From contig ONIU01000012.1 of NCBI GenBank assembly GCA_900317935.1, positions 1 to 64,000 of the forward strand: a stretch of 64,000 nucleotides of DNA, in the 5' to 3' direction. The position numbers and the translations under genes are program-made. Below the pieces are notes generated by a model, which did no database searches, had not been told where the DNA came from, and saw only the letters and a list, made by a program, of their open reading frames with translations. Origin of the DNA: an uncultured bacterium. Lineage in GTDB: Bacteria > Muiribacteriota > Ozemobacteria > Ozemobacterales > Ozemobacteraceae. Below, piece after piece: positions 7,525 to 45,099 of the stretch; within the stretch, counting starts at the first letter, position 1, and each line of letters begins with the position of its first letter.

Positions 7525-7688
7525 GTCTTCACCTCCTCCTTCGTGAGGAATAAAAAACCGTTTTCGGCACGAGACCGAAAACGGTTTGATATCAATATAT
7601 CTAACGATTTTCTAGTCTCGGCAGGGAGGTTCTTAAAGAACCAATTATCAAGACCTGCGGTCTTAGACCAGTTATGTCAAAGACAAAA
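7525..7688 (-). promoter_or_regulatory. L10 leader RNA with attenuator-like terminator stem
   Basis: The rplA-rplJ gap is transcribed as leader RNA. It has a kinked set of short helices around 7600-7680, as in L10-leader autoregulatory RNAs. Downstream is a 13 bp stem (7555-7567 with 7575-7587) with a seven-base loop and a T-run, placed just before the Shine-Dalgarno. By analogy with known L10 leaders, bound L10-L12 represses rplJL, here possibly by premature termination. The gene context and strong stem are seen; the mechanism is inferred. Confidence 0.8.
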
Positions 7689-39302: not shown

Positions 39303-40061
39303 TTACTTAGCTTTTTTTAGTAAAAGTGCTATATCTTGTTCATCATCGACAATATGCATTTTAGAATGACAATTTGGACATAAAGCAACTGCATTGCTTA
39401 ATTTATCAGCACCACCACGTGAAAGCCATATTACATGATGTACTTCCAAATACGGGTGTCCTTGTTTGTCTTGGAATGGAGCTTGATTACCACACAATTG
39501 ACAAATTCCATTGGCACGTTTTTTTGCTTTTTCGATAACATTTGCATTTCTCTTGAAACCCAAAGTAGTTGTTTCTCTTCTTTGAGATGCCTCTTCACCA
39601 AAATCAATATTTTGTTGAGTTTTTATTGTTGAATTGCGTGGAATACAATCAAATCGAATTCCATCTTTTGATACATATAAAGCAATGTATTCTCTACTGT
39701 CTTCTGGTATAACAAGGTGTGATTTATTATCCGCTTGATTTTTCCAATACTCATTAACGAAATATTCTGTTACAGAAAAAACTTCACGTATTTTTTGGGC
39801 AAGTAAACTTTGCTTAGTATAACGAATCTGTATTAAATCTGAGTGATTTGGAAATTTCACTTCATCAAAAAATTGATTCTTTATAACAGCATCATCGTAA
39901 ATATATCCACACATTTCCACTTTAATATTTTTCTGACTACCTTTTTCTAAGGAGAAATGCATTTTACTTAAAAGAAATTTCTGATAAGCAACAGGAATGC
40001 TTATTCCTTCATAAAGAGTCGATTTATCAACAATTTTTGTAAATAGAAGTTCCTCTACCAT
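39303..40061 (-). CDS. HNH endonuclease (McrA-like architecture)
   Basis: A protein of 252 residues from the ATG at 40061, which has AAGGAG seven bases upstream. The long upstream extension is rejected. The C-terminal HNH domain is complete: zinc Cys187/Cys190 (CQLC), His208-His209 (VHHVIW), Asn in LSNAVALC, and Cys228/Cys231 (CPNC) with His236. The N-terminal 180 residues are unassigned and may recognise modified or specific DNA. It is 90 bp upstream of the Wadjet operon in the same direction, so it belongs to the same defence island. A type IV restriction role is inference. Confidence 0.8.
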   Translation of the reverse strand: MVEELLFTKIVDKSTLYEGISIPVAYQKFLLSKMHFSLEKGSQKNIKVEMCGYIYDDAVIKNQFFDEVKFPNHSDLIQIRYTKQSLLAQKIREVFSVTEYFVNEYWKNQADNKSHLVIPEDSREYIALYVSKDGIRFDCIPRNSTIKTQQNIDFGEEASQRRETTTLGFKRNANVIEKAKKRANGICQLCGNQAPFQDKQGHPYLEVHHVIWLSRGGADKLSNAVALCPNCHSKMHIVDDEQDIALLLKKAK

Positions 40062-40265
40062 TTTAATTCTCCTTATAAATATATAAAAGATAGTTAACTT
40101 TATTATAAGTCTTTTTAAGACCATGAAAAACTTTCTTTGAATAATTTATTAAGTTGTTAACTATGATTTTATATTATTTATGTTGGAATTAAGTAATAAT
40201 AACCAAAGTAGTGAATGTATTTATAACAAATAAACAAAAAATATTACTCTAGTTAGATCACCACC

Positions 40266-40373: not shown

Positions 40374-40440
40374 TCTCTGAATTGCTTCAGAGGCGGTTGT
40401 TAGTTAAGTTTTGTGAATCGCAATTTTTCTTTCAATCTTT
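40374..40440 (-). repeat. diverged copy of the 3' tail of the large RNA, with terminator
   Basis: On the minus strand this matches the last ~85 bases of the large RNA (42072-42153) with one 12-base gap and a few substitutions. It contains AAAGATTGAAAG, TTGCGATTCA, AAAACTTA-CTAACA and the CTCTGAAGCAATTCAGAG hairpin plus T-run. It terminates the small secreted-peptide gene. Confidence 0.8.
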
Positions 40441-41914: not shown

Positions 41915-41962
41915 CGACTCGCTCACATCCTGTGGCTCGCTTGCACGCCGCCATCCTTGGCG
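41915..41962 (+). repeat. REP-like inverted repeat, left arm
   Basis: It starts CGACTCGCTCACATCCTG and ends GCCGCCATCCTTGGCG. It matches the reverse complement of 43564-43609 with several mismatches, so the two arms bracket the large-RNA gene. Confidence 0.75.
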
Positions 41963-42063
41963 ATAGCCCTCAAGTGGAGCCTTTAGAACAATCACTACCA
42001 AATACAACTATTCTAGCTGTGGCTAAACTAGGGCAGATATAAGATACTTCCCGAATCAGATAA

Positions 42064-42096
42064 AGCAAAACCGCCTCTGAATTGCTTCAGAGGCGG
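42064..42096 (-). terminator. terminator of the large RNA
   Basis: CCGCCTCTGAA and TTCAGAGGCGG form an 11-base-pair stem with a GCAA loop followed by TTTT. Confidence 0.9.
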
Positions 42097-43218
42097 CTGT
42101 TAGCTAAGTTTTGGTTGAATCGCATTTTTCCTTTTCGGAAACTTTCAATCTTTTGTGACTCGCTACGGTCTTTGACCTAACTTGTCTAGGCTTTTCGCCT
42201 TGCTTTGCCTTTTGGGCTTGTCCTCGTTAGAGGGCTTTCGTGGTCAGCTTCAGACGTCACCGTCTTTCAGCCACCCCTTCTTGTCTTTGGTGTCCCTTAG
42301 AGTTTTTAGTGTCTGCCTTTGGCCCCTATTTGTTCGGACCTGACCTTCTAGCGTTCGTCGCTCTCAAGGTCTTAAGTAACAATCACCTACACCTTTTGGT
42401 TATTCGGTTTGCTTTTGTTGTTTTAGCTTTCCTCTTTCGGACTTTCCGTCTTGGTTTTGTTTGTTTCTAGACTTCAAGGTTCTTGCTTCCACGGATTCTC
42501 ATCAGCTAGGGTTCGCTGACGCTTCCTTCAGGTTCGTTTTCCTTACAGCGCCGTCATCTTCGAGCGTGTCAGACGGTTTTCACACCGCCGCTCCCCATTC
42601 CTAGGTTTTCTCAGCCTTTCAACGGGTGGTTTGCGTTCTTCGGAGTTGTGGGTTTGTTCCGCCCCACTGGCACTTCGAGGATTATGGTCTTCAGAGTCTT
42701 ACGTTACATCCGGTCGGTTGCTGTCTCCAGCTCCTTGCTTCCCTCGCTGTTTTCCGTCTCTTTTCGGATTTCTTCCAGAGTCTGCGTGGGTTCCCTTACC
42801 TCTTGGCCGCTTCCGTTCGTTCCGGTTTCACGACCTCGCTTCGCTCTGACCCCTGGCTCATCGTTTCCTTTGAGTTGGTTTCCGTTCTGAGATTCGGTCC
42901 AGCCTCGGAGCTTTCTCCCGGTTGTTCCGCGCCTTGTCCTTGCTTGGTTTCACCCTCGCTTTGTCTCGGCTCCCTCTCTTGACCTTCTGACTCCCTTTGA
43001 GGTATCTGGCTTCTGGTGCCCCGCTCGACCATAAGGTCTGCCTTTCCCTCCTTCGCAGTTTCTACTGCCCTGGGGTTTCTCTGCACCTTTGAAGTTGCTC
43101 TCCCTCGGTGTTACCCGAGTGGCGCTCCCTCTCTGGGGTTTCTTCCTTGCTTCAAAGTTTAAGGTTTTTCGGATTTGCGATTCGTTTTTCAAAGATCTTA
43201 GCTCCCCTTGCGAGGAGA
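42064..43218 (-). ncRNA. large structured non-coding RNA, about 1.15 kb (no family assigned)
   Basis: No ORF with a ribosome-binding site or plausible protein exists on either strand. The segment is much richer in G+C than its surroundings (36 of 60 bases at 42901-42960) and purine-rich on the minus strand. It runs from a consensus promoter (43251-43222) to an intrinsic terminator. The 5' end forms CTCC...GGAG with a GCAA loop (43217-43202). Three nested long-range helices join the ends: 43203-43197 with 42108-42102, 43183-43176 with 42124-42117 (8 bp), and 43160-43154 with 42145-42139. Internal hairpins include 43119-43104, 43068-43055, 43038-43027 (the last two enclosed by 43087-43083/43019-43015), 42667-42648, 42593-42562, 42520-42501, 42265-42252 (GUGA loop), 42233-42222 and 42177-42167. 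Family unknown; GOLLD- or ROOL-like ornate RNAs are comparable in style. Confidence 0.75.
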
Positions 43219-43221
43219 GTT

Positions 43222-43251
43222 AATATATCACAAACAAATTTCTAAAGTCAA
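43222..43251 (-). promoter_or_regulatory. promoter of the large RNA
   Basis: TTGACT (43251-43246), an 18 bp spacer and TATATT (43227-43222) on the minus strand. Transcription should start right at the 5' hairpin. The TTGACTTTA core equals that of the tRNA-tuf promoter. Confidence 0.8.
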
Positions 43252-43456: not shown

Positions 43457-43563
43457 ATCTTTTCCCTCGAAAAATCGCCAACACGAAAGAGGCTGTCTAA
43501 AAACTAAGAATTTACTAATAAATCAGTGTGTGGAGTAATGTCTTCGCCCCCTTTTGTATTACC

Positions 43564-43609
43564 GCCATGGATGGCGGTATGCAAGCGAGCGCAGGAGGCC
43601 AGCGAGTCG
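43564..43609 (-). repeat. REP-like inverted repeat, right arm
   Basis: The reverse complement matches 41915-41962. It also contains the short perfect palindrome ACCGCCATGGATGGCGGT (43561-43578). Confidence 0.75.
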
Positions 43610-43695: not shown

Positions 43696-45099
43696 TTACT
43701 TAGCCTGCATTGTGTTCTTTAATTCTTTGAACAATCTTTCAAATTCAGATTTATCCTGAGATTTGATTCTCTTTTCAGTATAAGCAGCATAATTAAGTTC
43801 GCGAAGTAGAGCTTTTACATAAGCACTGCGAGGATTCTTCTTAGCTTCAGAGATTGCACTTCTTAATGGCTTGAAATCACCTTTGGTTATTTTTTCTACA
43901 GCCTTCTGAACATCTCTCTGCTGGCGAAGAGCCATAAGCATGTCATCCCACATTACCTTCTTAGAATAATCAAGAGTCAAGTATTTGCTTTCGATTGCTA
44001 AGTTGCTTGGCAAGTAAACAGCAATACCCTGAGCTTCTTCATACTTATTGTAATAACGGCCAGTAGTTTTATTGTTGATAATCATAGCCTTAGCTGCTTT
44101 TTCAACTTTGTCCATAGCAGTGATCAGAGAAGTATCACCCTGAACTTCTGGTCTCAAATTTTTGAGGAAGTGGAGAAGGTCGATATTCTGTGGATAAGCG
44201 AATTTAACAGTCTTACCAGCTGCAGTCATAACTTTATCAGCATATTTGCCGCTCATGATAGCTTTTGCAAAACCATCCATAGCATCAAGCAAAGCATCTG
44301 TTTTGCTCAAATCATAAGCAGACTGAGTTGAATCATCACGACCCTGACTACCACCATTGTAAGATGCAGCATATGCATCTACCCAATGACTAGCCAACTG
44401 TTTTGGAGTCATACCAGTCTTCCAACCTTTGAGAACATCATCATAAGGAGTGCCTTTGCCGGCTTCAGTTTCTTCTGAACCAACAAAATATTCACAATTA
44501 TCTTTAATAGCATAAGCAACTTCTGCCATACCCATCAAGCAGCAGTCCATGTTGATAATGTCAATCTTCTGACCTAAAACCTGTGCAATTTCTTTTGTTG
44601 CAATTGCAAGCTGGTCATTGGTTATGTGATTGTTTGAAGAATCATCGTAAGAAACGCCGCGGACAACTTCGTCCTGTTTTGCTTTCCAACCAGAACCATG
44701 GTTCCAGATACCAATCATATAATGCTTGGCTGGATAATTTTCTTTTATGAATTTGGCGAACTTAACGAGTTCATTATAATCGCCCATGTCCATTTCGCCC
44801 ATGTCTTTAATCTTCTTGATATTGCCTTTTTCAATATAGTTAATCTGAGCCGGGCCTCTTTCACGGTCGATTAAAGTAACAACATTCAAATTTTCGTTAG
44901 AACCAACACGAGCCATTTCTTCCTGGTCTTCAACACCGAATCTATCGAGGTTATTGTCGGCATTCAGGAAAACAGCAAAAGTCCATTCTTTTACAGGGGC
45001 TTTTTTAGCTGGTTTCTTAGCGGGGGCAGCTGCAAAAGAAGCAGCGGAGACACTTATCATAAGAGCAGTAGCAGCGATTATACTAGATACTTTTTTCAT
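43696..45099 (-). CDS. secreted clostripain-family (C11) cysteine peptidase
   Basis: A protein of 467 residues. The signal peptide MKKVSSIIAATALMISVSAA and the Lys/Pro/Ala linker are almost the same as in the gene at 29029-30441. Catalytic His134 (WNHGSGWK) and Cys187 (MDCCLMGM) are intact. The DCC instead of DAC motif is shared by this pair only. An AAGGAG-like site lies upstream. The promoter region carries a 44 bp tandem duplication (listed). The pair is a fairly recent duplication; differences are spread through the C-terminal half. Confidence 0.92.
   Translation of the reverse strand: MKKVSSIIAATALMISVSAASFAAAPAKKPAKKAPVKEWTFAVFLNADNNLDRFGVEDQEEMARVGSNENLNVVTLIDRERGPAQINYIEKGNIKKIKDMGEMDMGDYNELVKFAKFIKENYPAKHYMIGIWNHGSGWKAKQDEVVRGVSYDDSSNNHITNDQLAIATKEIAQVLGQKIDIINMDCCLMGMAEVAYAIKDNCEYFVGSEETEAGKGTPYDDVLKGWKTGMTPKQLASHWVDAYAASYNGGSQGRDDSTQSAYDLSKTDALLDAMDGFAKAIMSGKYADKVMTAAGKTVKFAYPQNIDLLHFLKNLRPEVQGDTSLITAMDKVEKAAKAMIINNKTTGRYYNKYEEAQGIAVYLPSNLAIESKYLTLDYSKKVMWDDMLMALRQQRDVQKAVEKITKGDFKPLRSAISEAKKNPRSAYVKALLRELNYAAYTEKRIKSQDKSEFERLFKELKNTMQAK

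What the first reader, a model, noticed from the sequence alone, without database searches (positions are those of the whole stretch)
42064..43218. Candidate new class of large structured RNA (about 1.15 kb)
Seen: a G+C-rich, minus-strand purine-rich island in AT-rich DNA with no believable ORF, framed by a consensus promoter (TTGACT-18-TATATT) and an intrinsic terminator. Its two ends pair through three nested helices: 43203-43197/42108-42102 (7 bp, the outer two bases shared with the 5' hairpin), 43183-43176/42124-42117 (8 bp) and 43160-43154/42145-42139 (7 bp). At least ten local hairpins lie between them, several with GNRA-like loops, plus a closed multibranch (43087-43083/43019-43015 enclosing two hairpins). 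Known RNAs of this size and style (GOLLD, ROOL, OLE) exist, but I cannot match this one to them.
Basis: partly seen in the sequence, partly recalled or inferred. Interest (0 to 1): 0.92.

Follow-up and report, generated by a model that had tools for sequence, protein, structure and literature searches.

The report
New giant structured RNA in Riflebacteria
This stretch of rumen-bacterium DNA makes no protein but encodes a roughly 1,150-letter folded RNA, whose shape is preserved by matched mutations in nearly every genome of its bacterial family and in at least two other phyla, and which matches no RNA family known to Rfam.

Summary
Window 43215-42062 (minus strand) is a stand-alone RNA gene of about 1.15 kb: sigma70-type promoter, no conserved ORF, intrinsic terminator. 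The genome is a rumen Candidatus Riflebacteria (Ozemobacteraceae). Homologues occur in 23 of 24 genomes of this family (one by fragments only), usually one copy each; in 4 of 4 genomes of a second Riflebacteria family; in 2 of 5 genomes of a second phylum; and in 1 of 8 of a third. A tree-based test gives 290 compensatory branch events on the consensus pairs against 14-20 for slid controls; all 10 top-scoring column pairs are in the structure, 0.1 expected. Rfam, phages, plasmids and IMG/VR give nothing. The genomes carry separate RNase P RNA, tmRNA and probable 6S RNA. Function is unknown; best reading: a housekeeping, trans-acting scaffold or self-assembling RNA comparable in style to OLE, GOLLD or ROOL but unrelated. 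Transcription was not shown.

The parts
43222..43251 (-). sigma70-type promoter TTGACT-18-TATATT
   Evidence: direct reading; TTGAC-box and TA-box at the matching place in the complete homologues
42062..43215 (-). large structured RNA gene, about 1.15 kb (5' end inferred as about 7 nt after the -10 box; 3' end at the terminator T-run)
   Evidence: homologues, covariation, folding z of -5.4
43197..43203 (-). outer closing helix, 5' arm
   Evidence: pairs with 42102-42108; own 5'/3' ends pair better than mismatched ends across all lineages
42102..42108 (-). outer closing helix, 3' arm
43176..43183 (-). second closing helix, 5' arm (GAATCGCA)
   Evidence: consensus helix, 93% canonical in 23 sequences, with covariation
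42117..42124 (-). second closing helix, 3' arm (TGCGATTC)
43148..43150 (-). site where this copy lacks a ~128-nt 5' subdomain present in the two long copies of its closest relative; a corresponding subdomain is present in the rest of the family
42686..42984 (-). central domain closed by 42984-42981/42689-42686, with nested helices and hairpins
   Evidence: covarying helices, scores up to 8
42540..42684 (-). most conserved core domain (basis of models R1-R3), shared with a second Riflebacteria family and two other phyla
42130..42532 (-). 3' domain closed by 42532-42521/42142-42130, with a long arm of short helices ending in paired hairpins
42247..42271 (-). GNRA-capped hairpin (loop GUGA 42260-42257)
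   Evidence: loop varies GUGA/GUAA/GCAA/GAGA across the family; highest covariation score of all helices
42723..42728 (-). GNRA loop GAGA (42727-42724)
42065..42098 (-). intrinsic terminator (GCCGCCTCTGAA...TTCAGAGGCGGTTTT)
   Evidence: direct reading
40375..40432 (-). displaced 3'-end fragment of the same RNA, downstream of a small ORF
   Evidence: 90% identity to query 1117-1176

Best explanation
The locus is a stand-alone gene for a previously undescribed class of large, trans-acting structured RNA. Shown by sequence: own promoter and terminator; ends closed by a long-range helix; the interior built mostly of short helices separated by small internal loops (3x3 purine loops are the commonest kind) and capped by conserved loops, several of them GNRA; maintained by selection on pairing; near-universal in Ozemobacteraceae and usually single-copy. 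Inferred: it is made from a sigma70 promoter and works as a rigid RNA scaffold, either in a ribonucleoprotein (as OLE does) or as an RNA-only homo-oligomer held by GNRA/A-minor and loop contacts (as GOLLD and ROOL are), in a housekeeping rather than phage role, because it is chromosomal, apparently vertically inherited within the family and absent from viral collections. My confidence is about 0.95 that it is a real structured RNA class outside Rfam, and about 0.4 in the scaffold mechanism.
For: Homologues. Covariation against a tree-based null and across lineages (96% of cells paired against 33-45% when slid). Closing helix in every lineage. No conserved ORF. No conserved neighbour or orientation on the downstream side, so not a cis-leader. 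Terminator close behind the closing helix in several lineages. GNRA loops. No viral, plasmid or phage match. No Rfam match.
Against: No transcript data were available. No protein partner or conserved neighbour found. No pseudoknot or loop-loop covariation was detected with a simple scan, so tertiary or quaternary contacts are unproved. The window copy itself lacks a subdomain and could be a decayed paralogue or an assembly artefact in this fragmented MAG (371 contigs). One near-complete family member (G013) has no detectable copy.
Confidence: 0.7

Rival explanations
1. RNA-only nanocage or oligomer: the RNA assembles with itself, needs no protein, and encloses or organises something in the cell.
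For: Size, conserved GNRA and purine loops, and no conserved protein neighbour; GOLLD and ROOL of similar style form RNA-only cages (PMC12286853).
Against: Those are phage/prophage RNAs; this one is chromosomal with no viral match. No loop-loop covariation found.
Confidence: 0.3
2. A ribozyme or other catalytic RNA.
For: Large, intricate and conserved over two phyla beyond its own, as catalytic RNAs are; the same argument has been made for OLE (PMC11332333).
Against: No match to any known ribozyme or intron family; no long invariant single-stranded core (only one run of at least 7 near-invariant columns).
Confidence: 0.1
3. A mobile or selfish RNA element: in the rumen genus, copies spread and leave 5'-truncated copies that share the 3' end.
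For: Several copies and dispersed 3' ends in G000 and G003, some directly after protein genes; flanking inverted repeats.
Against: One copy per genome in most other genera. The flanking repeats are generic dispersed repeats with 43 hits in the genome. Many truncations are contig ends.
Confidence: 0.08
4. A very long 5' leader or 3' UTR acting in cis.
For: It lies between genes, and in 8 loci the same outer-membrane-like gene lies upstream on the same strand.
Against: Own promoter and terminator; downstream genes differ and often face the other way.
Confidence: 0.02
5. A protein-coding gene (purine-rich ORFs of 80-96 codons on the minus strand).
For: Open stretches exist.
Against: Frames are not conserved and compensatory base-pair changes dominate.
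Confidence: 0.01

Closest known systems
OLE RNA (Ornate, Large, Extremophilic)
   Same: Large, intricate, chromosomal non-coding RNA of unresolved biochemical role
   Different: About 600 nt, mostly Bacillota, with known protein partners such as OapA (PMC12054373, PMC12286853); no covariance-model similarity
GOLLD RNA
   Same: Very large ornate RNA (many over 800 nt)
   Different: Phage/prophage, often near tRNA genes (PMC12286853); no covariance-model match, no viral homologue
ROOL RNA
   Same: Large ornate RNA, first described from rumen
   Different: Phage/prophage-encoded, forms an octameric cage (PMC12286853); no covariance-model match
RNase P RNA, tmRNA, 6S RNA
   Same: Stand-alone structured RNAs
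   Different: Present separately in the same genomes: RNase P RNA 23/24 and tmRNA 16/24 over the cut-off; 6S-like 20/24, mostly below the curated cut-off

Membership tests
OLE RNA | match to the Rfam covariance model | tested here: not met
   no hit in the window at E<=10 or in six homologous loci at E<=1
OLE RNA | binding of OapA/OapC partners | not tested
   gene for OapA not searched; no conserved neighbour at the RNA
GOLLD | match to the Rfam covariance model | tested here: not met
GOLLD | phage or prophage location, often near tRNAs | tested here: not met
   no phage or IMG/VR match; the window's tRNAs lie at 9.8-11.6 kb, over 30 kb away
ROOL | match to the Rfam covariance model | tested here: not met
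ROOL | RNA-only octameric cage | not testable with these tools
   needs cryo-EM or mass photometry
HEARO, group I or group II introns | match to the Rfam covariance models | tested here: not met
new RNA class (this one) | homologues with compensatory base-pair changes beyond phylogeny | tested here: met
   10 pairs score >=7 against 0.1 expected, all in the structure; cross-lineage core 96% paired (alignment fitted to the structure)
new RNA class (this one) | stand-alone transcription unit | tested here: inconclusive
   promoter and terminator sequences conserved; transcript not tested

The most novel reading that the evidence does not exclude
A categorically new, ancient class of about 1.1-kb ornate RNA, a housekeeping component in Riflebacteria and scattered through other candidate phyla, that builds a large RNA or ribonucleoprotein particle with an unknown cellular role.
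Probability: 0.5. Interest if true: 0.95.

Novelty: categorically new. Interest (0 to 1): 0.88.

Why it matters
Only a handful of bacterial RNAs exceed 500 nt with intricate conserved folds, and each known one has opened a field (ribosomal RNA, group II introns) or is an active puzzle (OLE, GOLLD, ROOL). This class is at least as large as those puzzles, is tied to the chromosome rather than to phages, is near-universal in one bacterial family and crosses phyla, which argues for an important cellular role. It is directly testable: the consensus structure, promoter and full-length sequences needed for expression, probing and cryo-EM are in hand. 'Categorically new' refers to the RNA class: it shares no detectable sequence or structure with a known family. 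As a loose kind of thing (large ornate bacterial RNA) it has company in OLE, GOLLD and ROOL.

Tried and rejected
Known-family assignment: Rfam at gathering and at relaxed thresholds gave nothing. Replacement of a missing housekeeping RNA: RNase P RNA and tmRNA, and probably 6S, are present. Mobile element bounded by its flanking inverted repeats: these are generic dispersed repeats. A first, all-pairs G-test covariation analysis with a tree null found no pair significant at E<=0.05, although 13 of its 20 top pairs lay in the structure against about 0.01 expected; a second test, counting compensatory branch events, was then used. Functional link through conserved neighbours: only an upstream outer-membrane-like gene recurs, in 8 loci. 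The organism names of the two other phyla could not be obtained. Literature searches for a published description found none in the open-access library; subscription papers and bioRxiv preprints are mostly not held there, so a description elsewhere cannot be excluded.

Full report
Observation. The window sequence 42064-43218 is a GC-rich (0.51 against 0.34), strongly minus-strand purine-rich island, the most strand-biased stretch of its length in the window. On the minus strand it begins with TTGACT-18-TATATT (43251-43222) and ends with a hairpin-plus-T terminator (42098-42065). Its folding energy lies 5.4 SD below dinucleotide shuffles.

Whose genome. A degenerate pattern from the conserved core found 20 stretches in GTDB genomes. 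The closest to the window are rumen MAGs from reindeer and goat. The window genome is a 4.5-Mb MAG in 371 contigs.

Distribution. blastn finds the RNA in 18 of 96 genomes, the window's included, all of the same family. A covariance model of the core (R1) finds it in 22 of 24 family members, usually once, and in 4 of 4 genomes of a second Riflebacteria family that played no part in training (E about 1e-6), but in none of the 12 genomes of six other families of the phylum. A 23rd family member, G001, has only fragments at contig ends. A model including the second family (R2), run on 382 genomes, hit one genome of another phylum (G217, E 2.7e-6). A third model (R3, trained with G217) then hit two genomes outside its training: a second genome of that phylum (G382, two copies, E 8e-7 and 2e-5) and a genome of a third phylum (G390, E 6e-13). 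Within those phyla it is found in 2 of 5 and 1 of 8 genomes held. Each hit lies in a ~1.1-kb island whose two ends pair. E-values are per genome and roughly calibrated, and searches of many genomes used strict filters, so absences are soft.

Structure. A 23-sequence family alignment gives a consensus of 292 pairs in 53 helices. With ancestral states reconstructed on a tree and substitutions redistributed along the same branches, 10 column pairs reach a compensatory score of 7 or more against 0.1 expected, and all 10 are in the structure; 33 reach 6 or more against 2.1 expected, 24 of them in the structure. The consensus pairs show 290 compensatory branch events against 14-20 when one side is slid by 1-3 columns. 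The structure was derived from the same alignment, so the slid control leans in its favour; the all-pairs comparison does not. A less powerful all-pairs G-test with a similar null gave no pair at E<=0.05, though its top pairs are strongly enriched in the structure. Across all lineages the core's 32 pairs are 96% canonical, with 26 pairs changed on both sides (that alignment was fitted to the model). The closing helix is present in every lineage, with own 5'/3' ends averaging -39.5 kcal/mol against -24.9 for mismatched ends. The commonest internal loop is 3x3 and purine-rich (9 of 33 in G022). Conserved GNRA loops occur at several places.

The window copy. It is about as long as its relatives in the wider family, but lacks a ~128-nt 5' subdomain present in both long copies of the nearest relative; in the other genera a corresponding subdomain is present. 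It has instead a longer 3' part peculiar to the genus. As the genome has at least three 5' ends and about ten 3' ends or fragments, many at contig ends, a misassembly or decayed paralogue cannot be excluded.

What it is not. No conserved ORF. Not a cis-leader: the downstream gene and its orientation vary. Not phage: none in 50,697 phage records, in plasmids or in IMG/VR. Not a stand-in for RNase P RNA or tmRNA, which are separately present, and probably not for 6S RNA. Not in Rfam.

How it may work. Shown: a selected, stand-alone, largely single-copy structured RNA gene. Inferred: transcription from a sigma70 promoter and action in trans. Most likely it is a scaffold, either with protein (OLE-like) or by self-assembly (GOLLD/ROOL-like); these two cannot be told apart by sequence. 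By membership it belongs to none of those families. The title 'new class of large structured RNA' is justified; function remains to be found.

Noticed in passing
window 40375-40432 (-); L007 1501-1603 and 2477-2566; L008 1501-1590; L004 1501-1668: The last ~60-170 nt of the RNA with its terminator recur elsewhere in the rumen genomes, some directly downstream of protein genes. They could be 5'-truncated copies or borrowed terminators, and could in principle pair in trans with the RNA's 5' end.
   Followed up: partly
window 41915-41965 and 43560-43609: Inverted dispersed repeats flank the RNA; the unit has about 43 matches in the genome and looks like a REP-type element.
   Followed up: yes
L035, L036, L037, L039, L040, L050, L074, L076: A long gene for an outer-membrane-barrel-like protein (judged by eye, no family search) lies upstream on the same strand in eight loci, suggesting an ancestral location.
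   Followed up: partly
window 39303-40124 (-): HNH endonuclease gene (Pfam PF01844) about 2 kb downstream of the RNA; not looked for at other copies.
   Followed up: partly
window 43696-45099 (-): Clostripain-family peptidase (PF03415) upstream of the RNA.
   Followed up: no
window 7543-7685 (-): Ribosomal protein L10 leader (RF00557) just above its gathering score.
   Followed up: no
L043: A contig filed under 'Candidatus Methylomirabilis' carries the RNA; its length matches a contig of G011, placed in the window's own family, so the record name is probably wrong.
   Followed up: partly
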